NCBI GenBank assembly: GCA_946892665.1
Contig: CAMPOT010000001.1
Location: 1,612,001 to 1,676,000 of the forward strand
Length of the DNA stretch: 64,000 bases
DNA from: Chryseobacterium sp. Marseille-Q5410
GTDB lineage: Bacteria; Bacteroidota; Bacteroidia; Flavobacteriales; Weeksellaceae
Direction of reading: 5' to 3'
The position numbers and the translations under genes were made by a program. Under the pieces are notes generated by a model, which saw nothing but the letters and a program-made list of their open reading frames with translations, had not been told where the DNA came from and did not search any database. Shown piece after piece: positions 30,410-43,967 of this stretch. Every line of letters begins with the position of its first letter. Within the stretch, counting starts at the first letter, position 1.

Positions 30410-31795
30410 ATGAACAAAGACACCATCTGCGCTTTAGCAACAGCCAACGGAATAGGAGCACTCGGAATCATCCGCCTTTCCGGGGAAGAAGCGGTAAGTA
30501 TTGCCCAAAAATCTTTCAAAGGTAAAAATCTGGAAAAACAGAAAAGCCATACCGTGCATTACGGCTACATGGTGGATGGTGAAGAAATCATTGATGAAAT
30601 TATGGTTTCGGTTTTTTTGGCTCCAAAAACTTTTACTACAGAAAATGTGGTGGAAATTTCCTTCCACGGTTCGCCTTTCATTGGGAAAAGAATTCTTGAA
30701 GTTTTAATTAAAAACGGCGCAAGAATGGCCAAAGCCGGCGAATTTACCATGCGTGCATTTATGAATGGTAGAATTGATCTCTCTCAAGCAGAAGCGATTG
30801 CAGATATAATTGCCAGCGAAAATGAAGCATCCAGAAAAGTGGCAATTAATCAGCTGAAAGGTGGAATTACCAATGAAATTTCGATTCTAAGAACCGATTT
30901 GCTCAATTTTGTATCGTTAATAGAACTTGAACTGGACTTCGCAGAAGAGGATGTGGAATTTGCTGACAGAACAGCACTTATCGGACTTTTAAAAAGAATC
31001 GAGGAGAAATTAAAATCACTTATTGAAAGTTTCCAGTACGGGAATGCGGTGAAAAATGGAGTAGCAGTGGCGATTTTAGGGAAACCTAACGCCGGAAAAT
31101 CAACGCTGCTAAATGCCCTGCTGAAAGAAGAGCGCGCCATTGTAAGCAATATCGCAGGAACTACCCGCGACACTATTGAAGAATTGCTGCACATTAAAGG
31201 AAATGCTTTCCGACTGATTGACACCGCTGGTTTACGGGAAACTACCGATGAAATCGAGAAAATCGGTGTTAAAAAAGCCATTGAAAAAGTGGAGCAGGCG
31301 GAAATCCTGATTTACCTCATCGATTCGGCAACCAATGATTTTACCGAAGATTTATTGATGATCAAGCCCTTGCTTCGTAACGATTTAAAACTCATCGTTT
31401 GCGCCACCAAAATTGATGAAGTGTTGCCATCACAGCATGAGAAAATGGAAGCTTTGCTAAGACAAGAAATCGCACTGGAATTTGACTTTATCAAAATATC
31501 TGCACTCGAAAACCAAAATCTTCAAGATCTGAAAAACGAGCTATCCTCCTATGTTGAAGAGCTTAAAACACAGGAAAACAACGTCGTAATCACCAATCAG
31601 CGACACTTTCAGGCATTGCAAAAATCCCTGGAATCCGTTCAGAAAGTAGAAGAAGCGGTACACACCAAAATCTCCACCGAACTCTTGGCCTATGAACTTC
31701 GTAACGCCCTAGAATACCTCGGCGAAATTTCCGGAGAATTCACCAACGACGAAGTTTTAGGAAATATTTTTTCTAAGTTTTGTATCGGCAAATAG
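30410..31795 (+). CDS. mnmE: tRNA uridine-5-carboxymethylaminomethyl(34) synthesis GTPase
   Basis: MnmE works with MnmG to modify wobble U34 of tRNAs, using a formyl-THF-binding N domain and an inserted G domain. Seen: MNKDTICALATANGIGALGI start, GRIDLSQAEAIADII, P-loop GKPNAGKSTLLNALL (~residue 226), switch II DTAGLRET, CATKID, and the obligatory C-terminal FCIGK with the catalytic cysteine. The length of 461 aa is normal. The 3' end matches the sequence reused at 42271-42291, and an integrase gene lies just downstream, so this end appears to be an integration site (see findings). Confidence 0.97.
   Translation: MNKDTICALATANGIGALGIIRLSGEEAVSIAQKSFKGKNLEKQKSHTVHYGYMVDGEEIIDEIMVSVFLAPKTFTTENVVEISFHGSPFIGKRILEVLIKNGARMAKAGEFTMRAFMNGRIDLSQAEAIADIIASENEASRKVAINQLKGGITNEISILRTDLLNFVSLIELELDFAEEDVEFADRTALIGLLKRIEEKLKSLIESFQYGNAVKNGVAVAILGKPNAGKSTLLNALLKEERAIVSNIAGTTRDTIEELLHIKGNAFRLIDTAGLRETTDEIEKIGVKKAIEKVEQAEILIYLIDSATNDFTEDLLMIKPLLRNDLKLIVCATKIDEVLPSQHEKMEALLRQEIALEFDFIKISALENQNLQDLKNELSSYVEELKTQENNVVITNQRHFQALQKSLESVQKVEEAVHTKISTELLAYELRNALEYLGEISGEFTNDEVLGNIFSKFCIGK
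31778..31795 (+). other. attL-like site at the 3' end of mnmE
   Basis: TTTTGTATCGGCAAATAG encodes the last mnmE codons and its stop. It matches 14 of 18 bases of the sequence at 42274-42291. The 3' end of mnmE (trmE/thdF) is the known integration site of SGI1-type islands in Proteobacteria. The role here is inferred from position, the repeat and the neighbouring integrase. Confidence 0.55.
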
Positions 31796-31861
31796 TTACC
31801 CTTCATTTATTTTCTAACAGCTTGTCTTTGTAGTAGTTATAAATTAAAATTCTTCTCTTAT

Positions 31862-31930
31862 TTGTTGCCTAATAGTGTTTTTTCGTGTATATTGTTGCCC
31901 AGATGTTGCTCAAGCAACAAATTTGTTGCC
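31862..31930 (+). repeat. TTGTTGCC arm-type repeats, left end
   Basis: Three direct copies of TTGTTGCC at 31862, 31892 and 31923, plus a small palindrome (GTTGCTCAAGCAAC, about 31904-31918). The same octamer recurs near the other putative end at 42217-42235. Such clustered repeats next to a tyrosine integrase gene are typical integrase arm-binding sites; this is inference. The rest of 31796-32012 has no gene. Confidence 0.5.
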
Positions 31931-32012
31931 CAAAAGCATAACAAATTCAAAGTGGCGAGTTTCTGCACCATGCAGCACCACACAGCTACAAACAGCACCA
32001 TCTGGCACCAAG

Positions 32013-32409
32013 ATGAAAACCAGAATCCAAATTCCAAAACACTGTCAGCTTTGCGGGCAGGCATTCGTAGCACAGACGACTACCACAAGATTGTGGAGAC
32101 AACTGTGCGAAACGCGCGTACAAATTGCGGAAAAAAGAAGGAAAGATTCAGCATGCACTCAATGTAGAGATTTCTGCAAATGATGCAAAACCGCAGACCT
32201 TGCAAAGTCTGCAAACTGTGCAACCTCATCTCAACCTTAACACAAAAGAATTTCTCAGTGTTCAGGAAGCAGCAGATCTTCTCGGAGCAAGCCGGTGGAC
32301 CATACAAAGACTGGTGCAGAGAAACGTCCTGAATGCAGCCAAACTTGGACGCAGAACAATTATACAACGATCCGAAATAGATAACCTTTTTAAAACTGAT
32401 GGAAAATGA
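32013..32409 (+). pseudogene. Frameshifted zinc-ribbon / HTH (excisionase-like) gene
   Basis: Two reading frames together give one Bacteroidota mobile-element protein. Frame one starts at ATG 32013: MKTRIQIPKHCQLCGQAFVA then TTTTR, with the first Cys pair of a zinc ribbon. At ~32091 the frame shifts (+1 or -2); frame two continues with CGDNCAKRAYKLRKKEGKI, supplying the second Cys pair, then an MerR/excisionase-type HTH (FLSVQEAADLLGASRWTIQRLV) and RRTIIQRSEIDNLF. With two missing T bases restored the join would read TTTTRFCGDNCAKRAY, the expected family sequence. The stop overlaps the integrase start by 4 bp. Either a true lesion or a sequencing error; no slippery site is obvious. Confidence 0.7.
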
Positions 32410-33257
32410 AAGTAACATTAAGGCAACGCAAGAAAGGAAATAAAATTTCTCTTTATCTGGATATATATGACAAAGGAAAAAGGGAATATGAGTATTTAGG
32501 TCTGTATCTGAAGCCAACCCCCGAAAAAGGTTCTTTAAGCAAAGCACAGAAAGACGAAAACAAAAAGATCCTGGATCTGGCGGAACACATTCGGAGTAAA
32601 AAGCATCTGGAAGCTCAAAACAATTTTTACGGATTCCGAGATAAAGAAAAACAGAAAGGTAAATTCTATGAATTTTTTGATGTCTTAACAGAAAAGAAAA
32701 ACGAAAGTCTCGGAAACTATGGAAACTTGAATGCCGTACGGATCATGCTGAAAGAGTACGACCCCAAAGAGGTAACTTTCGAGCGGCTTAACCGTGAATG
32801 GGTGCAAGGACTTAAAGATTACTTGAATACCCAAGCCAAAACCAAAACCGGCGAACCGATTTCCTTAAACACCAGATACAACTATTTCAACCAACTACGT
32901 GCAGCACTGAAACAGGCAGTAAAAGAAGGACTGTTGCAGTCAAACCCCGCAGATTATGTTGAGCCTTTCAAGCAAGACGATGTGCAGCGTGAATTCCTTA
33001 CCCTGGAAGAAGTTCAGAAATTAGCAAACACCCATTGCCGGAATGAAACCCTGAAAAAGATGTTGTTATTTTCCTGCCTTACAGGTTTAAGGTGGTCCGA
33101 CATCGAAAAACTCAAATGGTCCGAAATCCAGTTTTCAGAAAATTTAGGTAATTTTATCAGGTTCGGCCAAAAGAAAACAAGCGGAGCAGAAACGCTGCCA
33201 ATTGCGGAAGAAGCCAGGGCACTTTTAGGCGAACAGAAAGGTGCAGATGAAAGATGA
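32406..33257 (+). pseudogene. Truncated tyrosine-type site-specific integrase
   Basis: Phage-like integrase of Bacteroidota islands, 283 aa left of about 400. The arm-binding and SAM-like core-binding domains are intact (~1-200), and the catalytic domain begins with the first Arg in TGLRWSDIEKL and the beta-hairpin Lys in GQKKTSGAETLPI. After GADER the frame stops; the HxxR box, second His and the Tyr nucleophile are missing. The following DNA is unrelated fragments. The protein cannot be an active recombinase. It is coupled to the HTH relic upstream, and is the probable former integrase of the island at mnmE. Confidence 0.85.
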
Positions 33258-33398
33258 TTTATTGCGTAAATTGGTGCCGGATGTACTGGAGAAGATTAAA
33301 GATGGCTTCTACAAAAAACGGTAATGCATAACCTTAGAATTTTAGCTATATTTGGTTTTGTATATCTTTTAACAAATTGTAAGATTTATTCAGAATAA
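33247..33398 (+). other. Two micro-ORFs at the integrase break point
   Basis: Frame one, 33247-33324, encodes MKDDLLRKLVPDVLEKIKDG and five more residues; it looks like the C-terminal scrap of a larger protein. Frame two, 33324-33398, starts on the overlapping TAATG and encodes MHNLRILAIFGFVYLLTNCK and four more residues, resembling a lipoprotein signal peptide with lipobox LTNC, then stops. Both may be debris of deletions; neither is recognised. Confidence 0.3.
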
Positions 33399-33433
33399 TA
33401 TATTGACATAATTTCCCCTATTTAAAAATATCC

Positions 33434-33542
33434 GTGAATCAGGAATTAGTAAAAACACTTTGGGCTACTGCCGACAAATTACGCAACAATATGGATGCGG
33501 CCGAATACAAGCATGTAGTTTTGGGGCTCATTTTCTTAAAAT
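33434..33542 (+). pseudogene. hsdM: 5' stub of a type I methyltransferase gene (hsdM)
   Basis: From GTG 33434 the frame reads [20 protein letters not shown] then [16 protein letters not shown], the characteristic N-terminus of type I restriction-modification HsdM (N6-adenine methylase). After 36 residues the IS982-related element begins and supplies a stop codon. No further hsdM, hsdS or hsdR sequence is seen anywhere in the window, including beyond the second IS copy, so a type I system was lost here. Confidence 0.8.
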
Positions 33543-33920
33543 AACCCGTAGTGCATTATAAAAAAGGTTACTCATAATACGAAAATTTCGTATATTGTAT
33601 TGACTATCAATCTAATACATTATGAATAACCTAGATGCAATTTACGATTTTATTTTAAAGGAATTAAGAAAATTAACGATCAAAGAAAATTTTATTTCAA
33701 ACCAATTAAACCAAAATTATCTGATTTAGAACTCATTGCAATAAATATTTCTGCAGAATATTTATCGAAACAATTACGCAAAATCTTTTAACGGTTTTTA
33801 AAACAAGGGTATTGAGCAAAATAACAGCATTAACTTTCATTCAGTTTGTAAATGTTTTTGTTTTCAATAGAAAAATGAATAGTCTTAAAATTGAATTAAT
33901 TTAATAATGCACTACGAGTT
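33543..33920 (+). mobile_element. IS982-family element, internally deleted copy
   Basis: A 378-bp derivative of the element at 39404-40382. Both outer ends are kept (AACCCGTAGTGCATTAT left; ATAATGCACTACGAGTT right). The transposase N-terminus starts at 33622 (MNNLDAIYDFILKELRKLTI), has a 1-base deletion near 33690, and loses the middle: sequence jumps from GAATATTTATCGA to AAACAATTACGC near 33770, with a short shared GA at the junction. It keeps both inverted repeats and so could have moved as a MITE-like passenger. Confidence 0.85.
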
Positions 33921-33950
33921 TTAGGAATTAAAACGGACAATCATAAAATT

Positions 33951-35252
33951 TTATTGGTTTAAAAGCATTTCTTTCAATGCATCAAATTCAGGTTGAATAA
34001 CGATTGATTTCTTTTCTTGTTGCATTAATGAAATTAATTCTTCAGGAATTTCAACATCAATTTGAATGGCTTTTTCTACTGCTTTCGGAAATTTAACCGG
34101 ATGCGCAGTTTCCAAAATCAATCCTTTTTTATCTGGATTATTCTGTAAAAATTCATCTAAAACCGAATACGCAACCGCACCATGAGGTTCCAAAATATAA
34201 CCAGTTTTTTCATACACCTCAGCAATCGTTTGCAAAGTTGTTTTATCAGAAACCGAAGTTGAACTGATTAGGTTTTTCAATTCATCAAAATCCTCATGCA
34301 ACAATTCTAAAATTCGTACAAAATTACTCGGATCTCCAACATCCATAGCATTGGAAAGCGTGGCTACAGCTTCTTTTGGTTCGTATTTTTCAGTTTGTAA
34401 AAAATTCGGAATAACATCATTCGCATTACAAGCTGCAATAAAATGCTCCGCAGGAATTCCTCTGAAATAGGCTAAAATTCCTGCACAAATATTTCCAAAA
34501 TTTCCACTCGGAACACAAATTACAGGTTTTTCAGAATGTTTTTGCTTCCATTGTTTATAAGCTAACAAATAATAAATCTGCTGCGGAAGCCATCTCGCAA
34601 CATTAATGGAATTAGCTGAAGTTAATAAAATTTTCTCATTGGTTTCTTCATCAGAAAATGCTTGTTTTACTAGTTTCTGACAGTCATCAAAACTACCTTC
34701 CACTTCCAAAGCTTTTATATTTTCACCCAATGCAGTCAGTTGTTTTTCCTGAACCGGACTTACCCGATTTTTGGGATACAAAATCACCACTTCTACATTG
34801 GGAACTTTATAAAATCCGTTTGCAACAGCACCACCAGTATCACCGGAAGTTGCCACCAAAACGGTCACTTTTCGGGTTTCATCTTTCAGAAAATACGACA
34901 AACAACGACTCATAAATCTAGCGCCGACATCTTTAAAAGCCAACGTTGGTCCATGAAAAAGCTCCAATACATCGATGTTTTCAGAAATAGGTTTTAATGG
35001 AATATCGAAAGCAATGGTTTCTGAAACGATTTTACGAAGTTCCGGTTCCGGAATTTCGTCTCCCACAAAATCTTTCAAGCATTGAAAAGCGATTTCTTCA
35101 TCGGAATATTTCTCAATATTTTGAACAAAATCTTCTGACAATTGCGGAATATTTTCAGGGAAAAACAAACCTTTGTCTTTGCCTTGTCCTTTTATGGTTG
35201 CTTCTTTAAAATTGACGACTTCGTCTTTATGTTTAAGGTTGTAGAATTTCAT
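33951..35252 (-). CDS. thrC: Threonine synthase
   Basis: PLP enzyme converting O-phosphohomoserine to threonine, last step of the pathway (433 aa). Seen: MKFYNLKHKDEVVNFKEA start, LELFHGPTLAFKDVGARFMS with the PLP lysine, VATSGDTGGAVANGF phosphate loop, and SANSINVARWLPQ. ATG 35252 is the family-like start; another in-frame ATG at 35282 adds ten basic residues. It is the third gene of thrA-thrB-thrC, separated from thrB by a spacer of 7-nt repeats. An IS982 derivative ends 30 bp beyond its stop. Confidence 0.95.
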   Translation of the reverse strand: MKFYNLKHKDEVVNFKEATIKGQGKDKGLFFPENIPQLSEDFVQNIEKYSDEEIAFQCLKDFVGDEIPEPELRKIVSETIAFDIPLKPISENIDVLELFHGPTLAFKDVGARFMSRCLSYFLKDETRKVTVLVATSGDTGGAVANGFYKVPNVEVVILYPKNRVSPVQEKQLTALGENIKALEVEGSFDDCQKLVKQAFSDEETNEKILLTSANSINVARWLPQQIYYLLAYKQWKQKHSEKPVICVPSGNFGNICAGILAYFRGIPAEHFIAACNANDVIPNFLQTEKYEPKEAVATLSNAMDVGDPSNFVRILELLHEDFDELKNLISSTSVSDKTTLQTIAEVYEKTGYILEPHGAVAYSVLDEFLQNNPDKKGLILETAHPVKFPKAVEKAIQIDVEIPEELISLMQQEKKSIVIQPEFDALKEMLLNQ

Positions 35253-35310
35253 TTTTTTATTTTTGGAATTTGGGAATTTCATTTGTGAGAATTATGTTTT
35301 TAAAATATTT

Positions 35311-35371
35311 CGAAGTTCAAACTTCGTGCTTCAAGCATTCGTCTTCTGACATTTGACATCTAACTTCTTTC
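35311..35371. repeat. Heptanucleotide periodic spacer between thrB and thrC
   Basis: Nine degenerate 7-nt units (plus strand): CGAAGTT, CAAACTT, CGTGCTT, CAAGCAT, TCGTCTT, CTGACAT, TTGACAT, CTAACTT, then CTTTCTT running into the thrB stop. Units end in TT or AT and share the period seen at 6980, 7326 and 36399. Confidence 0.7.
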
Positions 35372-36292
35372 TTAATCAACAATTTGAATTCCGGAATTAT
35401 TTATTTTTGAAACATACACATAGTTTTCAACACCAATTTCATTGAATTCAAATTCCATCATTTCGCCCACTTCTTTCGCAGTTTCTTCCGTTTCGCTCAA
35501 CATAAAAATAGAAGGGCCAGAACCGGAAATTCCACCTCCAAGTGCGCCTAAACCAAAAGCTTTAGTTTTAATTAAATCGAATTTAGGAATTAAAATACTT
35601 CTAACCGGCTCTACAATTACATCCATCAAACTTCTACCAATCAAATCAAAGTCATTTTTCAAAATTCCGGCAACTAAACCGGCAATATTTCCCCATTGCG
35701 TCACCGCATCTTTTAGTTGAATATTTTTTTTCAGGATTTGTCTTGCATCAGCAGTTTTTACTTCCACTTGCGGATGAACAGCTGTTACAAATAAATTCGG
35801 TGAACTAAGCGGAATAATATCCAAAGGATGTGAAGATTTCACGAGCGTAATGCCGCCATAAATACAAGGCGCAATATTATCCGCATGTTGAACTCCGGAA
35901 GCCAACTCTTCTCCAAACATGGCAAATTTTACCAATTCTTCATTGGAAAGTGGTTTTCCCAACAATTCATTAATTCCAAAAGCGGCTCCAGCTGCACTTG
36001 CAGCACTGGAACCCAATCCGCTTCCCGGTTTTATATTTTTATGAATACGGACTTCGACTCCCTTATCATATCCCAAAGCTTCAAAAATCTTGAGAATAAC
36101 CACTCCGGCTACATTTTTTTCCGCAGCTTCGGGTAAACCAAAATCATCGGTATGCGTAATTCGAACGCCTGGAATTTGACTCAATTCAAACTCCATTTCA
36201 TCGAAAGGTGCATTAATTGCCATTCCTAATATATCGAAACCACAAACCAAATTGGCAACCGTTGCCGGTGCCTGGATTTTTATTTTTTTCAT
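35372..36292 (-). CDS. thrB: Homoserine kinase
   Basis: GHMP-family kinase (306 aa) phosphorylating homoserine to O-phosphohomoserine. Seen: N-terminal IKIQAPATVANLVCGFDILG, the ATP loop PGSGLGSSAASAAGAAFG, and a C-terminal GALGGGISGSGPSIFML. It lies between thrA (142-bp spacer) and thrC (119-bp spacer) in one operon. Confidence 0.95.
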   Translation of the reverse strand: MKKIKIQAPATVANLVCGFDILGMAINAPFDEMEFELSQIPGVRITHTDDFGLPEAAEKNVAGVVILKIFEALGYDKGVEVRIHKNIKPGSGLGSSAASAAGAAFGINELLGKPLSNEELVKFAMFGEELASGVQHADNIAPCIYGGITLVKSSHPLDIIPLSSPNLFVTAVHPQVEVKTADARQILKKNIQLKDAVTQWGNIAGLVAGILKNDFDLIGRSLMDVIVEPVRSILIPKFDLIKTKAFGLGALGGGISGSGPSIFMLSETEETAKEVGEMMEFEFNEIGVENYVYVSKINNSGIQIVD

Positions 36293-36398
36293 CTTAAATT
36301 TTTGCTACCAATATTCCGCAACTTCGTTGCTTCTTATTAATTTGAAAATATTTTTTTTTAAGCCCTTCGTTTCCGAAATCAAAAATTAACACATTTTT

Positions 36399-36434
36399 GA
36401 AGCTTCGGATATCCGACTTCAAACTTCAAACTTT
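36399..36434. repeat. Heptanucleotide periodic spacer between thrA and thrB
   Basis: Five 7-nt units on the plus strand (GAAGCTT, CGGATAT, CCGACTT, CAAACTT, CAAACTT) ending on the thrA stop codon. The array sits on the stop-codon side of thrA, like the array that abuts thrB. The remaining 36293-36398 is AT-rich without a gene. Confidence 0.65.
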
Positions 36435-38876
36435 TTAAACCGTTCTCATAATATCGGCAAACACACCACTTGCAGTAACTTCTGCTCCTGCTCCTGCTCC
36501 TTTCACAACCAATGGTTGTTCCGAGTATCTCAATGTTTTGAAAATCACAATATTATCTTTTCCATACAAATGAAATAAATCACTTTGCGGTTCAATTTTT
36601 TGAAGTCCGACTTTGGCTTTTCCATCGGAGAATTCCGCTACATATTTCAAAATTTGCCCTTCGGATTTCGCATCTTCAAAAAGTTGTTTAAAGTGAGATT
36701 CATACTTCGTCATCGCTGTATAAAAATCATCAACACTTCCTTGCATACATTCTTCCGGAAGGAAACCGATGTTTTCAATTTCATCAAATTCCAGTTGGTA
36801 ACCGGCTTCTCGAGCCAAAATTAAAATCTTTCTGGCAACGTCTGTTCCTGCTAAATCCAAACGTGGATCAGGTTCTGTAAAACCTTCATTTTGGGCATCT
36901 TTTACGACTTCGGAAAAGGTTTTTGTTCCATCATAATTGTTAAAAACAAAATTCAGTGTTCCGCTTAAAACTGCTTTAATAGAAATAATTCTGTCTCCAC
37001 TTCCAATCAAATCATTAATGGTTCCGATAATTGGTAAACCTGCTCCAACATTGGTTTCAAAGAAGAATTTACAGTTATGATTTTTAGCTAAATTTTTTAA
37101 ATTTTTATATTGAGCATAACTAGAAGCAGCGGCAATTTTGTTACACGCAACAACACTTATACTCTTTTTAAGAAGTTCTTCGTAAATATGAACCACTTCT
37201 GCATTGGCTGTTACGTCTACAAAGACGGAATTTCTTAAGTTTCGACTAATAATTTCGGTAGCGAATTTTTGAGGTGAAGATTCAGTTCCGTTTTCTGTCG
37301 TTTCCACGAAATCGGATTCTTGAATTCCTTTATCATTAAAACTCATTTTCCGACTGTTGGAAATTCCCGCAATACGAAGGTTCATTAATAGATTTTCCTG
37401 CAAAAATTGGTTTTGATGATAAATCTGCTGAACCAGTTTAGACCCGACATTTCCGATTCCACAGATATATAAATGGAGGTGCTTGATTTCGGACTCGAAA
37501 AATTCTTCATTAAGAACATTCACCGCTTTTCTGACATCATTTTCTGCAATCACGGCAGAAATATTTTTTTCTGAAGAACCTTGTGCAATGGCACGAATAT
37601 TCACTCCATTATGTCCAAGTGCGCTGAATAATTTTCCGCTAACTCCGCTTCGGTTTTTCATGTTTTCACCGACCAAAGCGATGATGGAAAGTCCGGTTTC
37701 AATTTGTACCGGATTTATTCTCTTCAAAAATAAATCATCATCAAATGCTGCATTGATGGCATTTTCCGCGTGTTCTACTTCATGTGCATTAATCGCAATC
37801 GTGATGGAATGTTCCGATGAACTTTGGGTGATGAGAATCACATTAATCTTTTCATCACTCAAACATTTGAAAAGTTTGGCTGAAATTCCGGGAATTCCGA
37901 CCATTCCCGCTCCTTCCAAAGTCAACAAAGCGATTTTACTCATATTGGAAATTCCAACCGCAACCTGATCGAAATTTACTTCCGCATCATCGGTAATTAA
38001 TGTTCCAAGATCTTCCGGAGCAAAAGTATTTTTGATTTTCAGACGAATATTTTTATTCATCACCGGTTGAATAGTTGGTGGATAAATGACTTTCGCACCA
38101 AAATGTGAGAGTTCCATTGCTTCCTGAAAAGAAATATGAGGAATAACCTTCGCGTTGGAAACCAAACGTGGATCAGCCGTCATCATTCCGCTAACATCGG
38201 TCCAAATTTGTAATTCTTCTGCCTGAATTGCGGAAGCAATAATGGATGCGGTATAATCCGAACCTCCTCTTCCCAACGTCGTTGCTTCACCGGAAAAGTC
38301 TGTTGAAATAAATCCTGGAAACAAAAAAATCTGATTGGAATGAGTCTGAAAAAATTCCTTTAATTTCTGATTGGTTTCTTCAAAATCGACTTTCGCATTT
38401 GTAAAATTAGAATTGGTTTTGATGTATAACCTCGAATCCGCCCAAAACACATCTGCATCTTCATTTTCTAATTTTGCAGCAATGATATTGGAAGATAAAT
38501 ATTCACCGTAAGATGCCACTTTATCCCGAATTCTGTCGGTAAATTCACCCAAGACAAAAATTCCGTTGCAGAGATCTTCAATGTCGTTGCATTGTTTTTT
38601 CACGAAACTTAACCATGAACTTTGGTTGGAAATCGGGATGAGTTCTTTCACCGCGTCCAAATGTTTTTGTTCAATTGTTTGAAGAATGTCTTGGTATTCT
38701 TCATTTTTTTGGGAAGCTAATGCTGACGCTTTTAAAAGTAAATCTGTAACTCCTGAAAATGCGGAAACCACCACTGCTATTGGTTGATTTTGAGCTTCAT
38801 TTCGGACAATTCTGCTCACCAATTCGATATTTTGTGCGTTGGCAACAGAAGTTCCTCCGAATTTGAGAACCTTCAT
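36435..38876 (-). CDS. thrA: Bifunctional aspartokinase / homoserine dehydrogenase
   Basis: Fused enzyme (813 aa) catalysing the first and third steps from aspartate to homoserine. The kinase domain starts MKVLKFGGTSVANAQN and has TLGRGGSDYTASI. Two ACT-type regulatory segments follow (LTLEGAGMVGIPG and ALVGENMKNRSGVSGKLF), usual sites of threonine feedback. The dehydrogenase part has ICGIGNVGSKLVQQI (NAD), VDVTANAEVV, VVACNKIAAASS and ETNVGAGLPIIGT. First structural gene of thrABC, preceded by the leader peptide described separately. Confidence 0.96.
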   Translation of the reverse strand: MKVLKFGGTSVANAQNIELVSRIVRNEAQNQPIAVVVSAFSGVTDLLLKASALASQKNEEYQDILQTIEQKHLDAVKELIPISNQSSWLSFVKKQCNDIEDLCNGIFVLGEFTDRIRDKVASYGEYLSSNIIAAKLENEDADVFWADSRLYIKTNSNFTNAKVDFEETNQKLKEFFQTHSNQIFLFPGFISTDFSGEATTLGRGGSDYTASIIASAIQAEELQIWTDVSGMMTADPRLVSNAKVIPHISFQEAMELSHFGAKVIYPPTIQPVMNKNIRLKIKNTFAPEDLGTLITDDAEVNFDQVAVGISNMSKIALLTLEGAGMVGIPGISAKLFKCLSDEKINVILITQSSSEHSITIAINAHEVEHAENAINAAFDDDLFLKRINPVQIETGLSIIALVGENMKNRSGVSGKLFSALGHNGVNIRAIAQGSSEKNISAVIAENDVRKAVNVLNEEFFESEIKHLHLYICGIGNVGSKLVQQIYHQNQFLQENLLMNLRIAGISNSRKMSFNDKGIQESDFVETTENGTESSPQKFATEIISRNLRNSVFVDVTANAEVVHIYEELLKKSISVVACNKIAAASSYAQYKNLKNLAKNHNCKFFFETNVGAGLPIIGTINDLIGSGDRIISIKAVLSGTLNFVFNNYDGTKTFSEVVKDAQNEGFTEPDPRLDLAGTDVARKILILAREAGYQLEFDEIENIGFLPEECMQGSVDDFYTAMTKYESHFKQLFEDAKSEGQILKYVAEFSDGKAKVGLQKIEPQSDLFHLYGKDNIVIFKTLRYSEQPLVVKGAGAGAEVTASGVFADIMRTV

Positions 38877-38918
38877 ATAATTGTATGTTTTTGTAAAATT
38901 AGTAAAAAGCTTTGTGAA

Positions 38919-38978
38919 CTCTTTAAAAAGAGCATCATGGAATGGATGATATGTGAAAATTTACCCCAAAAACGGGGT
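38919..38978 (-). promoter_or_regulatory. Candidate attenuator structures of the thr leader
   Basis: Three short hairpins in the leader RNA: ACCCC-GTTTTT-GGGGT over the last leader codons (38963-38978), ATCAT-CCATTCC-ATGAT (38934-38950), and CTCTTT-TT-AAAGAG (38919-38932), the last followed by a T-rich stretch. A classical GC-rich stem with a long U run is not seen, so which pair is terminator and anti-terminator is not settled. Confidence 0.4.
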
Positions 38979-39071
38979 TGTAATTGTAATCGTGATAATA
39001 ATTGAAGTAGCAGTTCCGAAAATAGAATTTTCGGTTACAAATGTTTGGATATTTCTTTCTGCTATTGGCAT
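38961..39071 (-). CDS. thrL: Threonine operon leader peptide
   Basis: A 36-codon frame 84 bp upstream of thrA. It starts at ATG 39071, ~10 bp after a consensus -7 box, and its last third is SIIITITITTPFLG: in the 13 codons from residue 22 to 34 there are five Thr and five Ile. This is the codon composition of the E. coli thrL leader, where ribosome stalling at Thr/Ile codons relieves transcription attenuation. The peptide ends inside a small hairpin. Sequence, place and composition are seen; the regulatory role is inferred. Confidence 0.75.
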   Translation of the reverse strand: MPIAERNIQTFVTENSIFGTATSIIITITITTPFLG

Positions 39072-39081
39072 CACGATGAAA

Positions 39082-39089
39082 CAAATATA
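39082..39089 (-). promoter_or_regulatory. -7 promoter element of the thr operon
   Basis: TATATTTG on the minus strand, an exact TAnnTTTG, 10 bp before the leader-peptide start. No clear TTG at -33. Confidence 0.5.
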
Positions 39090-39155
39090 GACATTATATT
39101 TTACACCTCCTCTACATTTTGGGCATTAGTTTTCAAAAAAATAAAGGTTCATTTT

Positions 39156-39403
39156 TTAATCACCACTGCCGCAACCTCCACAACCGCCTCCACATGAACT
39201 TCCACAAGATCCACCAGCACTATCACTACTTCCACAACTTGCAGCTGATCCTCCAAAATAAGCATCCGAAGCAACTTTTTTTGTAAAAGACATATTGGCA
39301 AAAGCTAAGAGTCCAACTGCGAGCGTTCCTTGAAGAAAATAATTGATTTCCGTATTTTCGGAAGATTCTTCATGAGATTTTTTTACAGAATAATATTGCT
39401 TAT
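39156..39403 (-). pseudogene. 3' stub of a Gly/Cys-rich membrane protein (TIGR04222-like)
   Basis: On the minus strand the frame entering from the IS edge reads YKQYYSVKKSHEES, then NYFLQGTLAVGLLAFANMSF, and ends in a Gly/Ser/Cys tail (GGSAASCGSSDSAGGSC, CGSSCGGGCGGCGSGD). This ending is typical of TIGR04222-type membrane proteins. The N-terminal part is missing because the IS982 copy at 39404 replaces it. The gene would have pointed the same way as thrA and lies just upstream of the thr promoter. Confidence 0.6.
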
Positions 39404-40382
39404 AACCCGTAGTGCATTATAAAAAAGGTTACTCATAATACGAAAATTTCGTATATTGTATTGACTATCAATCTAATACTTTATGAATAACCTAGATGCA
39501 ATTTACGATTTTATTTTAAATGAAATAAGGAAATTAACGATCAAAGAAAATTTTTATTTCAAACCAATTAAACCAAAATTATCTGATTTAGAACTCATTG
39601 CAATAAATATTTCTGCAGAATATTTATCGATAGATTCAGAATATCAGTTGTTTAGATACCTCTCTAATTCAAAACTAAAGGGAATGATTGAGAGAAGTGT
39701 GTTTAATCGCAGAAAAAGAAAGCTTTTCTTACACTTGGAAAATATTAGAAAACTTATGGTTGCTAAATTTAATGAGATGGAAACCACTTTTATTGTAGAT
39801 TCGATGCCTTTAGAAATCTGCAAAAACGCAAGAGCGAACCGCTCTAAAATTTGTAAGGAAAAATGAATTTTCGTTTCCCAGCAAAGGTTATTGCGCTTCT
39901 CAATCGAGTTATTATTATGGTTACAAATTACATGCAGTTTGTTCTGTTTCCGGAGTTTTCCAAAGTTTTGATATTTCTACAGCAAGCATTCATGATATTC
40001 ATTTTTTCCAAGATATCAAGCATCAAATGAACAATTGTACGTTGATTGGAGACAGGGGTTATTTATCCACCCAAGTGCAAACAGATTTGTTCAATTATGC
40101 GAATATAAAGCTGGATACACCCATGAGAAACAACCAAAATAATTATCAATAACAGAAATATATTTTCAGAAAATCCAGAAAAAGAATTGAGACTTTATTC
40201 TCTCAACTTTGCGACCAATTTAAAATCAGAAACAATTACGCAAAATCTTTTAACGGTTTTTAAAACAAGGGTATTGAGCAAAATAACAGCATTAACTTTC
40301 ATTCAGTTTGTAAATGTTTTTGTTTTCAATAGAAAAATGAATAGACTTAAAATTAAATTAATTTAATAATGCACTACGAGTT
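39404..40382 (+). mobile_element. IS982-family insertion sequence
   Basis: A 979-bp element bounded by near-perfect inverted repeats: left AACCCGTAGTGCATTAT, right (reverse complement) AACTCGTAGTGCATTAT, one mismatch in 17. Size and transposase fit IS982. No convincing target duplication is seen at either copy. It is in the same orientation as the short copy at 33543-33920, and the two bracket the threonine operon. Confidence 0.88.
39483..40366 (+). pseudogene. IS982-family transposase, frameshifted and with a nonsense codon
   Basis: DDE transposase. The N-terminal frame (39483-39866) ends after RSKICKEK; one extra A in the run at ~39858-39862 causes this, since the next frame continues ENEFSFPSKGYCASQ, then YYYGYKLHAVCSVSG and TLIGDRGYLS (second catalytic Asp region). 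A second lesion is TAA after MRNNQNNYQ (40150-40152), before the C-terminal frame IFRKSRKRIETLFSQLCDQF, which carries the catalytic Glu. The element is therefore probably inactive on its own. Confidence 0.85.
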
Positions 40383-40729
40383 AATTACATATTTCCCAAC
40401 ACCTCCGCATCCAACCCACCGTAAAGAAAGTAGGTTACCATACACAAAAAATCAAAAAAAAGGCAGCAAAGATAGGGGGCTTCCTTAGCCAGCCGCCATC
40501 AGCTGTAAAGGTCACGCCTTCCGGGTTTTGTTGAAAAAATCTCCACCCTGCGGGTTGTATTTTTTCTCCAAAAACCTTGACAGCTTTTTCCGCGCCCCCT
40601 TTCAATTGGGCTTTCTTTTTTTTTTTTTTTCTTTGAAAATTTTTTCAGTCATATTTATTCCATAAAAGACTGATATATAAGCCCTATATAAAGCATATAT
40701 ATTTAACTATTATAATCAAATCGGTGCAG
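40383..40729. other. Non-coding stretch, locally GC-rich
   Basis: No gene is seen. The part at ~40470-40620 (AGCCAGCCGCCATCAGC, CACGCCTTCCGGG, CCACCCTGCGGG, CCGCGCCCCC) is much richer in G and C than its surroundings and looks like the non-coding DNA around transfer regions of Bacteroidota conjugative elements. That link is from memory and is weak. The rest is AT-rich. Confidence 0.35.
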
Positions 40730-40761
40730 AAAAAAGCAAAGCCCACTCGTGAGAATGGGCT
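40730..40761 (-). terminator. Terminator of the 267-aa gene
   Basis: Minus strand: GCCCA...TGGGC stem with an inner CTC/GAG pair, followed by TTTGCTTTTTTC. Confidence 0.65.
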
Positions 40762-40796
40762 GCTTCGATTTTCCGAATAAAATCTACTGATGGTTC

Positions 40797-41600
40797 CTAG
40801 AAAATTTTTGCTACTTTCATCGCATTCCCTTGCGTAAAAATGTAGTAGTTACTGTTCACTTCCTGATAAAACTCAACAGAGATAAGATTAATCACGGAAG
40901 AGTCCGCTGTAATTTCTGGTGAGTCTGGAATGGTTGTTACAATGTTGAGTGCAGTAGTAGGCACGTTCACTGGAAGATATCCCGAATCTGAAATAGCGGT
41001 TAGGCCATTAACGGCAGGATCCTTCGGCTCATAAGCTTTTGTGGTAGGATTATAAGCAAAGTCAGACAGAACCGTTATTGCATTAATGATTTTGAAATGC
41101 GTTGCTCCAGCCGGAATAAACATGTTGTCAAGAGGATTAAACGCCGGGATAGACAAATCCGATTCATCACGGTCCACCGATGGAGTAATGGTGTAAGGAG
41201 CATTGAAGACCCCACTGAAAGAATTAAACTTATTGAATTCAAAGCCGTCCAGATATTGCGGAGCAGCTGTAACCAGAATCGCCCTTTGACCTCTGGCTTC
41301 AGAACCATCTTCCAGGTTAATCTTTTTCATGACCGCAGTAATTCTACCTGTAACTCTGCTGTCGGCACTGTTCCGGATTAAATTGGCAATACTTGTACGG
41401 AATGAACGTCCCGCAGTAGCAGAACCTCCAAATTCATTCATGTTTTCACGGGTACGAACAAATGCAGGATCAGATGCAATTTGTTCACCGGTTGGGCCTC
41501 CCTTTAATCCAGCATAATAGCCTGGATTATTCTTGATTTTGAAGTGTCGAACTTCGCCCAGAGTTCCGACGTACTTAATGTGACCTTTTTGCCTTGCCAT
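40797..41600 (-). CDS. Protein of unknown function (267 aa)
   Basis: Not assigned to a named family. The N-terminus is basic and glycine-rich (MARQKGHIKYVGTLGEVRHF, then GYYAGLKGGPTGEQI); a helical segment RENMNEFGGSATAGRSF and TSIANLIRNSADSRV follows; the second half is beta-rich. No signal peptide or membrane helix. I recall similar proteins as common, unannotated genes in Flavobacteriia accessory DNA. It has a strong promoter, a 10-bp inverted repeat across that promoter, and its own terminator, so it is a monocistronic regulated gene. It shares this stand-alone layout with the DUF6266 gene at 51817. Confidence 0.75.
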   Translation of the reverse strand: MARQKGHIKYVGTLGEVRHFKIKNNPGYYAGLKGGPTGEQIASDPAFVRTRENMNEFGGSATAGRSFRTSIANLIRNSADSRVTGRITAVMKKINLEDGSEARGQRAILVTAAPQYLDGFEFNKFNSFSGVFNAPYTITPSVDRDESDLSIPAFNPLDNMFIPAGATHFKIINAITVLSDFAYNPTTKAYEPKDPAVNGLTAISDSGYLPVNVPTTALNIVTTIPDSPEITADSSVINLISVEFYQEVNSNYYIFTQGNAMKVAKIF

Positions 41601-41618
41601 AATTTTTTAATTTTAAAT

Positions 41619-41660
41619 TATTTGTCTTAAATTTACGTATAAGTAATTGGAAGACAAATA
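41619..41660 (-). promoter_or_regulatory. Promoter and palindromic operator of the 267-aa gene
   Basis: Minus strand: TTG (41655-41657), 19-bp spacer, TAAATTTA (41628-41635). A perfect 10-bp inverted repeat, TATTTGTCTT (41619-41628) and AAGACAAATA (41651-41660), has one arm on each promoter box, a layout expected for a repressor site. Confidence 0.6.
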
Positions 41661-41679
41661 GTTAAAAATATATAACCAA

Positions 41680-42171
41680 ATGCAAATTGATGCAAAGGAT
41701 CAGATTTTAAAGAAAATATACTACGAAGTAGTAAAAGTTGTTGACGGTGATGGTATAATTGTGCGTAATATTTTAACTAAAATAGAGGAGGAGATAAGGC
41801 TTTATGGAATCGATGCTCCTGAATTAACACCATGCAGAAAATTAAAACAGGATGAATCTGAAACCCAAATTGCCGGCAGTCTATTAATGAAACTAGCTTA
41901 CGAATCGTAAAATTATATGCGGTCTATTGTAAAGCCGGGAGATCAGGTTAATATCATCCAGGAACGAAATAATCTATCAGATAAATACGGCAGAACGTTA
42001 GCTTATGTTGAATTACAAGACGGAAGTATCCTAAATGAAATGATGGTTGCTGCAGGATATGCAAAAGCATACAATAAGATTCTCTGTTTAGAATTGCCAA
42101 AATACCAACAACTTTCTCTGAATGCTAAAACCAATAAAAAAGGCTTATATCTGTACGTCGATCAGTTCTGA
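41680..42171 (+). pseudogene. Thermonuclease (SNase-like) gene with an in-frame stop
   Basis: Two parts in the same frame. Part one (41680-41910) has YYEVVKVVDGDGIIVRN and EIRLYGIDAPEL, with the Asp and first Arg of the staphylococcal nuclease active site. TAA at 41908-41910 interrupts after LAYES. Part two (41911-42171) resumes NYMRSIVKPGDQVN and has LSDKYGRTLAYVEL with the second Arg, then MVAAGYAKAY. Without the stop the protein would be ~163 aa, a normal SNase size. No signal peptide. Likely inactivated by one substitution. Confidence 0.8.
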
Positions 42172-42216
42172 TTACTCAAGCCAACTTCTCTTATTTACCA
42201 CCCGATTTCACTCGTT

Positions 42217-42235
42217 TTGTTGCTTATTTGTTGCC
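42217..42235 (+). repeat. TTGTTGC arm-type repeats, right end
   Basis: TTGTTGC at 42217 and TTGTTGCC at 42228, same strand as the three copies at 31862-31930, about 40 bp inside the attR-like site. Upstream, CTTCTCTTATTT (42185-42196) also matches sequence beside the left array. Confidence 0.5.
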
Positions 42236-42273
42236 CCATTCTCGCAAAGCCCCATTAATAAACAAAAGTTAGA

Positions 42274-42291
42274 TTCTGTATCGGGAAGTAA
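42274..42291 (+). other. attR-like site, copy of the mnmE 3' end
   Basis: TTCTGTATCGGGAAGTAA, preceded by AGA, reads R-F-C-I-G-K-stop in frame, exactly the C-terminus of an MnmE protein, though no mnmE gene is here. It matches the mnmE end at 31778-31795 in 14 of 18 bases. It is the expected second junction of an element inserted at the 3' end of mnmE. Confidence 0.6.
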
Positions 42292-42375
42292 TCTATCAAA
42301 ACTTTTGCATAAAAATATTTCTTTTAAAATTTACATTATATTAATTATTTTTATTGAAGGCTTTTCTTAAATTCA

Positions 42376-42479
42376 AATTATATGCTTTAACCTGTATCTA
42401 TAATTTAATACAAATTATTGTATTTATTTGCATATAATTTTATACATTTGCTTTATATTTGTTGTAAAAGCATATAATT
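42376..42479 (+). promoter_or_regulatory. hipBST promoter with three GCATATAATT operators
   Basis: The 10-mer GCATATAATT occurs at 42430-42439 and 42470-42479 and inverted at 42376-42385. A -7 element TATATTTG lies at 42454-42461, 18 bp before the start codon; a TTG at 42428-42430 is 23 bp upstream, wider than usual. The repeats flank the -7 box as expected for autoregulation by the HipB-type HTH protein. Confidence 0.6.
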
Positions 42480-42692
42480 ATGTATCCTAATATTTCAAAT
42501 TTTGTAAAGCAAAAGCGTAAAGAAGCTCGTTTAACCCAAGAAGAATTTGCTGAGCGCGCAGGTGTTGCACTTACTGTTGTTCGAAAAATAGAACAGGGAA
42601 AAGAAAATTTGAGTCTGGCAAAAGTAAATCAGGTTCTTTTGATGTTTGGTAGTAAATTAATCCCTATGAACACTAAAGAAGTAGAAGAATGA
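42480..42692 (+). CDS. hipB: HipB-like HTH antitoxin/regulator
   Basis: A 70-aa XRE-family DNA-binding protein. The HTH spans residues ~8-60 (NFVKQKRKEARLTQEEFAER, then LTVVRKIEQGKENLS and VLLMFGSKL). It is first gene of a three-gene unit and its stop overlaps the hipS start by 4 bp. HipB proteins repress their own operon and bind the toxin; the repeated GCATATAATT upstream are the likely sites. In HipBST systems the HTH protein augments antitoxin action of HipS. Confidence 0.88.
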   Translation: MYPNISNFVKQKRKEARLTQEEFAERAGVALTVVRKIEQGKENLSLAKVNQVLLMFGSKLIPMNTKEVEE

Positions 42693-43024
42693 GACTGGGA
42701 AGGGTTTTTTATAATTCCATTTTTGCAGGGATTATTACCGAAACAGGCGATGGTGAATATACATTTTCCTACGATTCTACTTATATTCAAAAATATCCCA
42801 ATCAGTTGATTACATTTTCAATGCCTGTTTCTAGTAAAGTCTATAAAGAAAAAAGATTATTCCCATTCTTTGAAGGATTAATTCCCGAAGGATGGCTTTT
42901 AGACATTGCCTCCGATAACTGGAAAATTAATAAGAATGATCGCATGGGATTATTATTAGTTTGTTGTAAGAATTGTATTGGATCAGTAAGCGTTGAACCA
43001 ACTGAATTATCTGAAAATGAGTAA
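42689..43024 (+). CDS. hipS: HipS-like protein (HipA N-terminal subdomain)
   Basis: A 111-aa protein equal to the N-terminal subdomain 1 of HipA (couple_hipA): GRVFYNSIFAGIITET, then FPFFEGLIPEGWLLDIASDN and DRMGLLLVCCKNCIGSVSV. In classical HipA this is fused to the kinase; here it is separate, as in the HipBST system of E. coli O127, where HipS is the antitoxin. It overlaps hipB by 4 bp and hipT by 8 bp. Confidence 0.87.
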   Translation: MRLGRVFYNSIFAGIITETGDGEYTFSYDSTYIQKYPNQLITFSMPVSSKVYKEKRLFPFFEGLIPEGWLLDIASDNWKINKNDRMGLLLVCCKNCIGSVSVEPTELSENE

Positions 43025-43967
43025 ATGTCTGTTTTGTTATCAAGCTTTGAAAGACGATGAAATTGATTTTCATCCAAAATGCAGTAAAAAAATCTTTGGT
43101 ACTGCGGAAGCTCCATTGCTTAATTATACTTTAGACGAGATGGAAACTTTAGCAAAGGAGATTATCGAAACTTCTATTTCAGTTCCTGGTGTTCAACCCA
43201 AATTATCTCTAGGTTTTAAAAAAGAAAAGTTAGCAGATGGAACAAAAGGAAGATTAACGGTATTAGAAGCTTTAGGTGGTCAATTTATTTTGAAACCTCA
43301 AAATAAAACGTTTCCCGAAATGCCAGAAAATGAACACCTAACAATCAAATTAGCAGAATTGCTAAGAATACAGACCGTTGTATCTTCATTAATACGATTA
43401 AAATCGGGAGAGCTTTCTTACATCACCAAAAGAATAGACAGAACAACAAAAGGTGAAAAAATTCACATGTTGGATATGTTTCAAATTACTGAAGCATTTG
43501 ATAAATATCGAAGTTCTGTTGAAAAGGTAGGGAAAGCGGTTATTGACCATTCGTCCAATACCTTACTTGATGTTTTAAGACTTTATGAGATCATTATTTT
43601 TAGTTATATAACAGGGAATAATGATATGCATCTTAAGAATTTTTCATTGATTTTAAAGGATGAAAAATGGGCGCTTGCTCCTGCTTATGATTTGTTGAAT
43701 GTTCAACTGCATTTACCGGAAGATAAAGAAGAAACAGCTTTAACAATCGGAGGTAAAAAAAGTCGCTTAACAAAATCTGATTTTGTTATTTTGGGAACTA
43801 AACTTGGGCTATCGGAAAAACAAATTGAAAACGTATTCAAAAGATTTCTCAAAGCTGAGAAGAAAATGCTATTATTGATTGAGCAATCATTTTTGGGCGA
43901 TGCCAATAAAATTAACTATAAAGATTTATTCATAGAAAGAATTAGTTTGGTTAGTGGTCTAAACTAG
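43017..43967 (+). CDS. hipT: HipT-like Ser/Thr kinase toxin
   Basis: HipA-family kinase core (316 aa) lacking subdomain 1. ATG 43017 is chosen; an upstream in-frame ATG-like start at 42993 lies within hipS. It begins with a putative zinc knuckle, Cys4-x2-Cys7 and His19-x2-Cys22 (SKCLFCYQ, FHPKCSKK). The Gly-rich loop region ETSISVPGVQPKLS holds Ser53-Ile-Ser55, like the SIS autophosphorylation motif of HipT. Catalytic GNNDMHLKNFSL and the metal-binding Asp in LAPAYDLLNV are intact. HipT of E. coli phosphorylates tryptophanyl-tRNA synthetase; the target here is unknown. Confidence 0.87.
   Translation: MSKCLFCYQALKDDEIDFHPKCSKKIFGTAEAPLLNYTLDEMETLAKEIIETSISVPGVQPKLSLGFKKEKLADGTKGRLTVLEALGGQFILKPQNKTFPEMPENEHLTIKLAELLRIQTVVSSLIRLKSGELSYITKRIDRTTKGEKIHMLDMFQITEAFDKYRSSVEKVGKAVIDHSSNTLLDVLRLYEIIIFSYITGNNDMHLKNFSLILKDEKWALAPAYDLLNVQLHLPEDKEETALTIGGKKSRLTKSDFVILGTKLGLSEKQIENVFKRFLKAEKKMLLLIEQSFLGDANKINYKDLFIERISLVSGLN

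What the first reader, a model, noticed from the sequence alone, without database searches (positions are those of the whole stretch)
31778..42291. Decayed genomic island at the 3' end of mnmE, with a displaced mnmE end as attR
The last codons of mnmE (FCIGK-stop, 31778-31795) recur ten kilobases away as RFCIGK-stop (42271-42291; 14 of 18 bases identical over the 18-mer) where there is no mnmE gene. TTGTTGCC repeats lie just inside both ends (three left, two right), and a tyrosine-integrase gene sits 610 bp inside the left end. The 3' end of mnmE/trmE/thdF is the integration site of SGI1-type islands in Proteobacteria; I do not know of the same use in Bacteroidota. The integrase is truncated, so the element is fixed.
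Basis: partly seen in the sequence, partly recalled or inferred. Interest (0 to 1): 0.85.

Follow-up and report, generated by a model that had tools for sequence, protein, structure and literature searches.

The report
Dead mobile island at mnmE's end
A Kaistella bacterium carries the wreck of a mobile DNA element inserted at the very end of the gene mnmE; integrase genes of the same lineage sit at that spot in many other Bacteroidota, and some viral sequences carry a copy of this gene end that would let them integrate there too.

Summary
The last 18 bases of mnmE (31778-31795) recur at 42274-42291 (14/18 identical); the degenerate core matches nowhere else in the 2.69-Mb genome. Apparently intact relatives (20-28 kb) lie at mnmE in four other genomes, two of them Kaistella montana and K. 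palustris, with the same anatomy: mnmE end, TTGTTGCC repeats, HTH/xis-like gene, tyrosine integrase, primase-helicase, variable cargo such as restriction-modification genes, a 267-aa gene, a nuclease gene, second mnmE end. An empty site behind a 99%-identical mnmE shows insertion. The window copy lost the integrase's catalytic end and most of the primase gene (about 4.65 kb), and an IS982-flanked threonine operon sits in its middle.

The larger result: this integrase lineage mostly serves mnmE in Bacteroidota. 72 of 80 named relatives lie directly behind mnmE, across several orders. Of 45 viral contigs with a related integrase, enough upstream sequence and no mnmE there, 31 carry an mnmE-end mimic upstream of it; three of these encode a terminase. 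I found no report of this for Bacteroidota in the searches listed. Kinship with SGI1 was not tested.

The parts
30410..31795 (+). mnmE (trmE, thdF), the target gene, 461 aa, still ends FCIGK
   Evidence: TIGR00450 E 3.2e-120; Pfam TrmE_N, MnmE_helical
31778..31795 (+). attL core TTTTGTATCGGCAAATAG, the mnmE 3' end
   Evidence: TAG stop as in the left cores of G149, G158, G083
31862..31930 (+). three TTGTTGCC direct repeats, predicted arm-type integrase sites
   Evidence: at 31862, 31892, 31923; two or more TTGTTGC[CT] in 64 of 72 leaders of related elements, at most 1 of 72 in any of 200 mononucleotide shuffles
32125..32409 (+). HTH_17 / excisionase-family gene, probably frameshifted (relatives have one 132-187 aa ORF here)
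   Evidence: PF12728 E 4.3e-11, TIGR01764 E 8.4e-12; relatives' ORFs; frameshift inferred from the ORF lists
32406..33257 (+). tyrosine integrase, cut at 283 aa; lacks the part that in 15 aligned full-length copies holds invariant H314, R317, H340, Y349
   Evidence: catalytic role of these residues recalled
33241..33318 (+). deletion scar: integrase homology ends 33240, tail of the BT4734/DUF3987 primase-helicase gene starts 33252; about 4.65 kb missing relative to G149
   Evidence: blastn against G149 and G158; domain of the intact gene
33434..33542 (+). first codons of what looks like a type I methylase (hsdM-like) gene, cut by IS982
   Evidence: translation by eye, and 80% over 40 nt (E 0.001) to G137's methylase-like gene
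33544..33919 (+). IS982 copy with internal deletion
33951..35282 (-). thrC, threonine synthase, secondary cargo
   Evidence: ORF; name recalled; relatives in 3 of 35 other genus genomes
35372..36292 (-). thrB, homoserine kinase, secondary cargo
   Evidence: ORF; name recalled; not searched for
36435..38876 (-). thrA, aspartokinase/homoserine dehydrogenase, secondary cargo
   Evidence: ORF; name recalled; relatives in 3 of 35 other genus genomes
39405..40381 (+). second IS982 copy, transposase gene broken
   Evidence: NF033520 on 39483-39863
40384..42273 (.). right-hand backbone of the element; blastn to G149 93.4% over 1913 bp (40382-42291), stops at the end of attR
40797..41600 (-). ORF267, gene of unknown function near attR
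   Evidence: 98% (G149), 93% (G158), 81% (G083), 33% (G007) identical copies at the same place; 750 homologues, no Pfam family
41680..42171 (+). staphylococcal-nuclease-like gene, broken into two ORFs; one ORF of 163 aa in G149
42217..42235 (+). TTGTTGCT and TTGTTGCC, predicted right-arm integrase sites
   Evidence: TTGTTGCC before the right core also in G149, G158, G083, G007
42274..42291 (+). attR core TTCTGTATCGGGAAGTAA, the displaced original mnmE end
42292..43967 (+). right flank: hipB (42480) and a split hipA
   Evidence: same flank right of the core in G137, 94% over 185 nt before hipB

Best explanation
The 10.5-kb stretch between the end of mnmE and position 42,291 is a decayed integrative element that its own tyrosine integrase likely inserted by recombining with the last 18 bases of mnmE, which left the original gene end stranded as the right-hand repeat. 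Shown: an empty site in a close relative, full-length relatives of the element with both junctions, and the two cores. Inferred: the integrase would bind TTGTTGCC arm repeats through its N-terminal arm domain and exchange strands inside the shared TGTATCGG block, so that the incoming copy restores the codons FCIGK-stop and the host keeps MnmE. Taking the left part of attL and the right part of attR gives an original site TTTTGTATCGGGAAGTAA, which is exactly the uninterrupted mnmE end of G140. Afterwards one deletion removed the integrase's catalytic end and most of the primase-helicase gene, IS982 cut a methylase-like gene, and an IS982-flanked threonine operon came to lie in the middle; the order of these steps is not known. 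Without the catalytic end the element is predicted to be fixed. The integrase belongs to a lineage that mostly sits at mnmE in Bacteroidota, and relatives of it occur in viral contigs, likely temperate phages, that carry the mnmE end as a probable attP.
For: Second core unique in the genome. Empty site: 1674 bp at 94.9% (G149) and 1266 bp at 95.7% (G168) lie directly behind mnmE in G140 and right of the second core in the others. blastn homology with G149 stops at attR's last base; the right flank of attR is G137's. Same gene order in four relatives. 28 of 29 relatives' loci fetched have mnmE within 1.4 kb of the integrase, the 29th is cut by a contig end. 72 of 80 named loci likewise. In the genus, of 22 listed integrase places (one more was not listed), 12 of 12 with open frames of 362-411 or 435 aa lie within 8.2 kb of mnmE (11 within 860 bp) and 0 of 10 with 415-417 aa do.
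Against: Excision, integration and arm binding were not measured. Four of 80 named loci (L103, L109, L112, L113) carry the integrase with arms but neither mnmE nor its core, and 14 of 45 testable viral loci lack the core, so the lineage is not strictly tied to the site. The right flank differs between G000/G137 and G140/G149/G168, so the window's own exact empty site was not found. The blastn alignment with G137 begins 36 bases before the core, not exactly at it. In G168 the flank breaks off after 1.27 kb and is partly repeated about 13 kb further, so that locus has been rearranged too. No target duplication marks the IS982 copies.
Confidence: 0.93

Rival explanations
1. The element was a prophage, not a plasmid-like island; only its integration module survives.
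For: Viral contigs carry related integrases with the mnmE-end core upstream (31 of 45 testable loci without mnmE); 3 of the 14 viral records tested encode a terminase.
Against: The relatives of this very element hold a primase-helicase and restriction-type cargo; among the 20 of their proteins that I scanned (13 of 24 listed ORFs of G149, 5 of 18 of G158, 2 of 25 of G007, none of G083) no capsid, portal or terminase family was matched (PHROGs for 10 of the 20). All 26 viral integrases in the tree form one separate starred branch.
Confidence: 0.04
2. The repeat arose by an IS982-driven rearrangement or segmental duplication that carried off a piece of mnmE.
For: Two IS982 copies in direct orientation lie inside the region.
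Against: The repeated part is only the core, neither copy touches an IS, and the same junction recurs in genomes with other contents.
Confidence: 0.02
3. Chance similarity: the sequence at 42274 has nothing to do with mnmE.
For: Only 14 of 18 bases agree.
Against: One extra match in the genome, just where homology to full-length elements ends and where G137's flank begins.
Confidence: 0.01

Closest known systems
SGI1 and relatives (e.g. MGIVchHai6), islands at the 3' end of trmE/mnmE/thdF in Gammaproteobacteria
   Same: Target is the 3' end of mnmE (PMC8409611 and PMC5704250, passages seen); tyrosine integrase and xis.
   Different: Other phylum. The window's integrase matches Arm-DNA-bind_5 and Phage_int_SAM_5. 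Backbone is BT4734/DUF3987 primase-helicase, ORF267 and SNase-like gene; no tra-, mps- or sga-type name came up among the 10 proteins scanned. Kinship of the integrases was not tested.
Canonical IMEs of Bacteroidota (NBU1, NBU2, Tn4399, Tn4555)
   Same: Integrase-bearing elements of Bacteroidota.
   Different: Those encode a MobP relaxase (PMC5704250, passage seen); no relaxase family was matched among the 13 of 24 G149 ORFs scanned, the rest were not scanned.
dusA-specific integrase family
   Same: One integrase family shared by islands and prophages at one tRNA-modification gene (PMC4482086: title, start of abstract and two passages seen).
   Different: Target dusA 5' end; the passage seen names thdF/mnmE only as the target of SGI1, and the word Bacteroidetes does not occur in its main text.

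Membership tests
mnmE-targeted tyrosine-integrase island | integrase gene next to the mnmE 3' end | tested here: met
   611 bases from the end of mnmE
mnmE-targeted tyrosine-integrase island | second copy of the mnmE end at the far junction | tested here: met
   42274-42291; no third match in the genome
mnmE-targeted tyrosine-integrase island | empty site in a relative | tested here: met
   G140 against G149 and G168; met for the site and the relatives' elements, the window's own flank is another
mnmE-targeted tyrosine-integrase island | functional integrase | tested here: not met
   283 of 368 aa, catalytic end absent: a dead member
SGI1 family | target 3' end of mnmE | tested here: met
SGI1 family | IncC-responsive mobilization genes (mpsA, traG, sgaCD) | tested here: inconclusive
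   no such name among Pfam and PHROG matches of 8 G149 and 2 G007 proteins; no SGI1 protein was compared
SGI1 family | integrase of common descent with SGI1 Int | not tested
   no SGI1 integrase was obtained
Bacteroidota IME (NBU/Tn4399 type) | MobP relaxase | tested here: inconclusive
   none among 13 of 24 G149 ORFs scanned with Pfam; the rest unscanned
IS982 composite transposon (thr segment) | two IS copies flanking the segment | tested here: met
   the only two places of this IS found in the genome
IS982 composite transposon (thr segment) | target-site duplication outside the two copies | tested here: not met
   flanks TTAAAATA and TAATTACA do not match

The most novel reading that the evidence does not exclude
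The last six codons of mnmE (FCIGK-stop) are a phylum-wide attachment site of Bacteroidota: one dedicated tyrosine-integrase lineage, with TTGTTGCC arm sites, brings defence and metal-resistance islands and temperate phages to it and restores the gene end each time, independently of the SGI1 islands that use the same codons in Proteobacteria. The block is shared across phyla because the protein's C-terminus is.
Probability: 0.6. Interest if true: 0.65.

Novelty: new variant of a known kind. Interest (0 to 1): 0.58.

Why it matters
It gives Bacteroidota a predictable address for islands and probably prophages: look behind mnmE, and the element is bounded by two copies of the gene end. The same codons are used in Gammaproteobacteria by SGI1, a spreader of drug resistance, so the site may be a common landing place across phyla. 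Full-length elements in environmental Kaistella strains make the reaction directly testable.

Tried and rejected
Chance repeat: rejected. IS-made duplication: rejected. The idea that the thr operon is native between mnmE and hipB: rejected, since G137 has hipB at the core without thr, and thrA and thrC relatives occur in only 4 of 36 genus genomes, the window's included; in G063, 87 kb from mnmE. ORF267 as a marker of mnmE elements: rejected, since the family occurs in 69 of 296 genomes and five times in this genome. Function of ORF267: a model of mean pLDDT 88 (the first 40 residues are weaker) gave no match at E 0.001 or better in the PDB or in viral structures. Comparison with the SGI1 integrase led nowhere: in E. 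coli, 776 of 5374 matching genomes have no single place covering 80% of the mnmE-tnaC stretch, and the three I opened hold one annotated gene there and no integrase. Paper searches: searches found no paper; 45 two, 46 two, 80 one, none a Bacteroidota case in the listings and passages seen; one held 171 papers of which 20 were listed, only one of them with mnmE; one held 16, 15 listed, seen as listings only; 22 listed 20 SGI1 papers. The library holds open-licence papers only. From PMC7449626 three passages were seen and not used. Rows left out: L008 from the integrase set (no start found); 54 of 80 viral integrases from the tree.
Full report
What is in the window. mnmE ends at 31795 and its last 18 bases recur, 14 of 18 identical, at 42274-42291. 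In the whole genome (G000, 2.69 Mb) the degenerate core matches only these two places. The host is a Kaistella: the same-genus relatives G149 and G158 lie on contigs of the same lengths as the records named Kaistella montana LZ_2022a and K. palustris DSM 21579.

Proof of insertion. G140, whose mnmE is 99% identical to the window's, had no integrase match at E 1e-20 and runs from mnmE straight into DNA that in G149 and G168 starts right after a second core, 28.2 and 17.1 kb away. In G168 that flank breaks off after 1.27 kb and is partly repeated about 13 kb further on. The window's own right flank, 94% identical over 185 nt before hipB, follows the second core in G137 too, where a different 13-kb island lies between the cores; the blastn alignment there begins 36 bases before the core. 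The original site read from attL's left part and attR's right part equals G140's mnmE end.

Full-length relatives. G149 (28.2 kb), G158 (20.1 kb), G083 (25.4 kb, another genus) and G007 (23.2 kb, another genus) hold the element at mnmE, with integrases 94, 85, 73 and 58% identical to the window's. Their ORFs show a common backbone: HTH_17 gene, integrase of 368 aa, one or two genes of unknown function, one or two further HTH-type genes, primase-helicase, variable cargo, ORF267 on the opposite strand, and an SNase-like gene (in G007 on the other strand and judged by eye). Domains were searched for 8 backbone proteins of G149 and 2 proteins of G007. Cargo differs: type I restriction-modification in G149 and G158 and a PrrC-like protein in G158; long efflux-type and P-type-ATPase-like proteins in G149 and G007 are named from recall. 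In G083 a second integrase of the family follows attR at once, a tandem.

Decay of the window copy. blastn homology to G149 covers 31703-33240 (93%), resumes at 33252-33318 with the tail of the primase gene, then at 40382-42291 (93%): about 4.65 kb are gone between the first two blocks. A methylase-like gene start (33434-33542) is cut by IS982. The nuclease gene is split, and the HTH gene seems frameshifted.

Threonine operon. thrC, thrB and thrA (33951-38876; names recalled) lie between two IS982 copies, one internally deleted; no others were found in the genome. Relatives of thrA and of thrC are found in the same 4 of 36 genus genomes, the window's included, the other three 47-75% identical, so most of the genus may lack this pathway. 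No target duplication was seen, so a composite transposon is a suggestion only.

A site used across the phylum. With an alignment of 15 integrases (A1), 80 named genome loci were fetched, the best of 579, all labelled Bacteroidota. mnmE lies directly upstream in 72 of 80, with gaps of 189-683 bases; in 2 more the contig begins at or just before the core (L151, L162); one is cut nearer (L107); one has a core-like sequence without mnmE (L085); four have neither (L103, L109, L112, L113). A core within 750 bases upstream is present in 74 of 80. A1 was built from mnmE neighbours, which favours such hits. The unbiased start was the window integrase alone: 28 of 29 relatives' loci beside mnmE (in L029 1.4 kb off), the 29th at a contig end; these are the 29 best genomes, not all 154 with a match. 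As a control inside the genus, of 22 listed places (a 23rd, in G137, was below the listing), 12 of 12 with open frames of 362-411 or 435 aa lie within 8.2 kb of mnmE, one of them 8.1 kb away in G155 behind another, while 0 of 10 with 415-417 aa do; the split by frame length was made after seeing the data. In one search the core matched in 279 of 296 family genomes and the backward control, counted by eye, in 22; among the places printed (the list was cut off) I count by eye 18 genomes with co-oriented cores 3.9-44 kb apart on one contig.

Arm repeats. In the 72 leaders between mnmE and integrase, 64 have two or more TTGTTGC[CT] in the first 250 bases and 43 two or more TTGTTGCC; in 200 mononucleotide shuffles the largest counts were 1 and 0. 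The four loci away from mnmE keep such repeats but not the core. That fits integrase-binding arms; no binding was measured.

Viral contigs. Of 80 IMG/VR loci with related integrases (39-47% identical to A1's first row), 12 hold an mnmE piece. Of 45 without mnmE in the fetched stretch and with 300 bases or more upstream, 31 carry an F-C-x-G-K-stop core (x encoded by RTN) within 400 bases upstream, 24 of them with more than 1 kb of contig before the integrase; 14 do not; 20 shuffles of each gave none. The other 23 are short upstream, 5 of them with a core. Of 14 records tested for one terminase family, three match (G300, G301, G304, behind L200, L202, L222, all with a core); 11 do not, and records may be fragments. 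Hosts of these contigs were not determined.

Tree. In a quick maximum-likelihood tree of 135 rows (the window, 134 of 188 integrases, viral ones thinned to 26 of 80), the viral rows form one branch, and near-identical integrases occur in different families, some of them MAGs, which suggests transfer. The label 'mnmE' needs 12 changes (shuffled mean 27.2); 12 rows are cut by contig ends.

Novelty. mnmE as a site is known for SGI1-type islands (PMC8409611, PMC5704250; passages seen). In the table passage that I saw the trmE site is listed only for gammaproteobacterial elements. I found no report for Bacteroidota.

Noticed in passing
33951-38876: A threonine operon lies between the only two IS982 copies found in the genome; thrA and thrC relatives occur in only 4 of 36 genus genomes, so most Kaistella may need threonine.
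   Followed up: partly
40797-41600: ORF267: 750 homologues, nearly all of the 120 listed exactly 267 aa, no Pfam family, AlphaFold model without a confident fold match; five copies in this genome.
   Followed up: partly
L103, L109, L112, L113: Integrases of the same family with the same arm repeats but after another core, away from mnmE: a possible switch of target site.
   Followed up: no
L052 2166-2597: G140 has an extra fragment of mnmE (residues 1-144, 94% identical) behind a second pepP-like gene about 4 kb upstream of the whole mnmE.
   Followed up: no
L054 2516-15579: G137's 13-kb island at mnmE has two cores, restriction-type genes and a HipA-like gene but no match to the integrase.
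   Followed up: partly
39160-39402: C-terminal end of a Cys/Gly-rich protein gene on the minus strand, cut by IS982, lying with the thr operon.
   Followed up: no
42689-43967: hipA is split into two ORFs (HipA N-terminal and C-terminal domains) right of attR.
   Followed up: no
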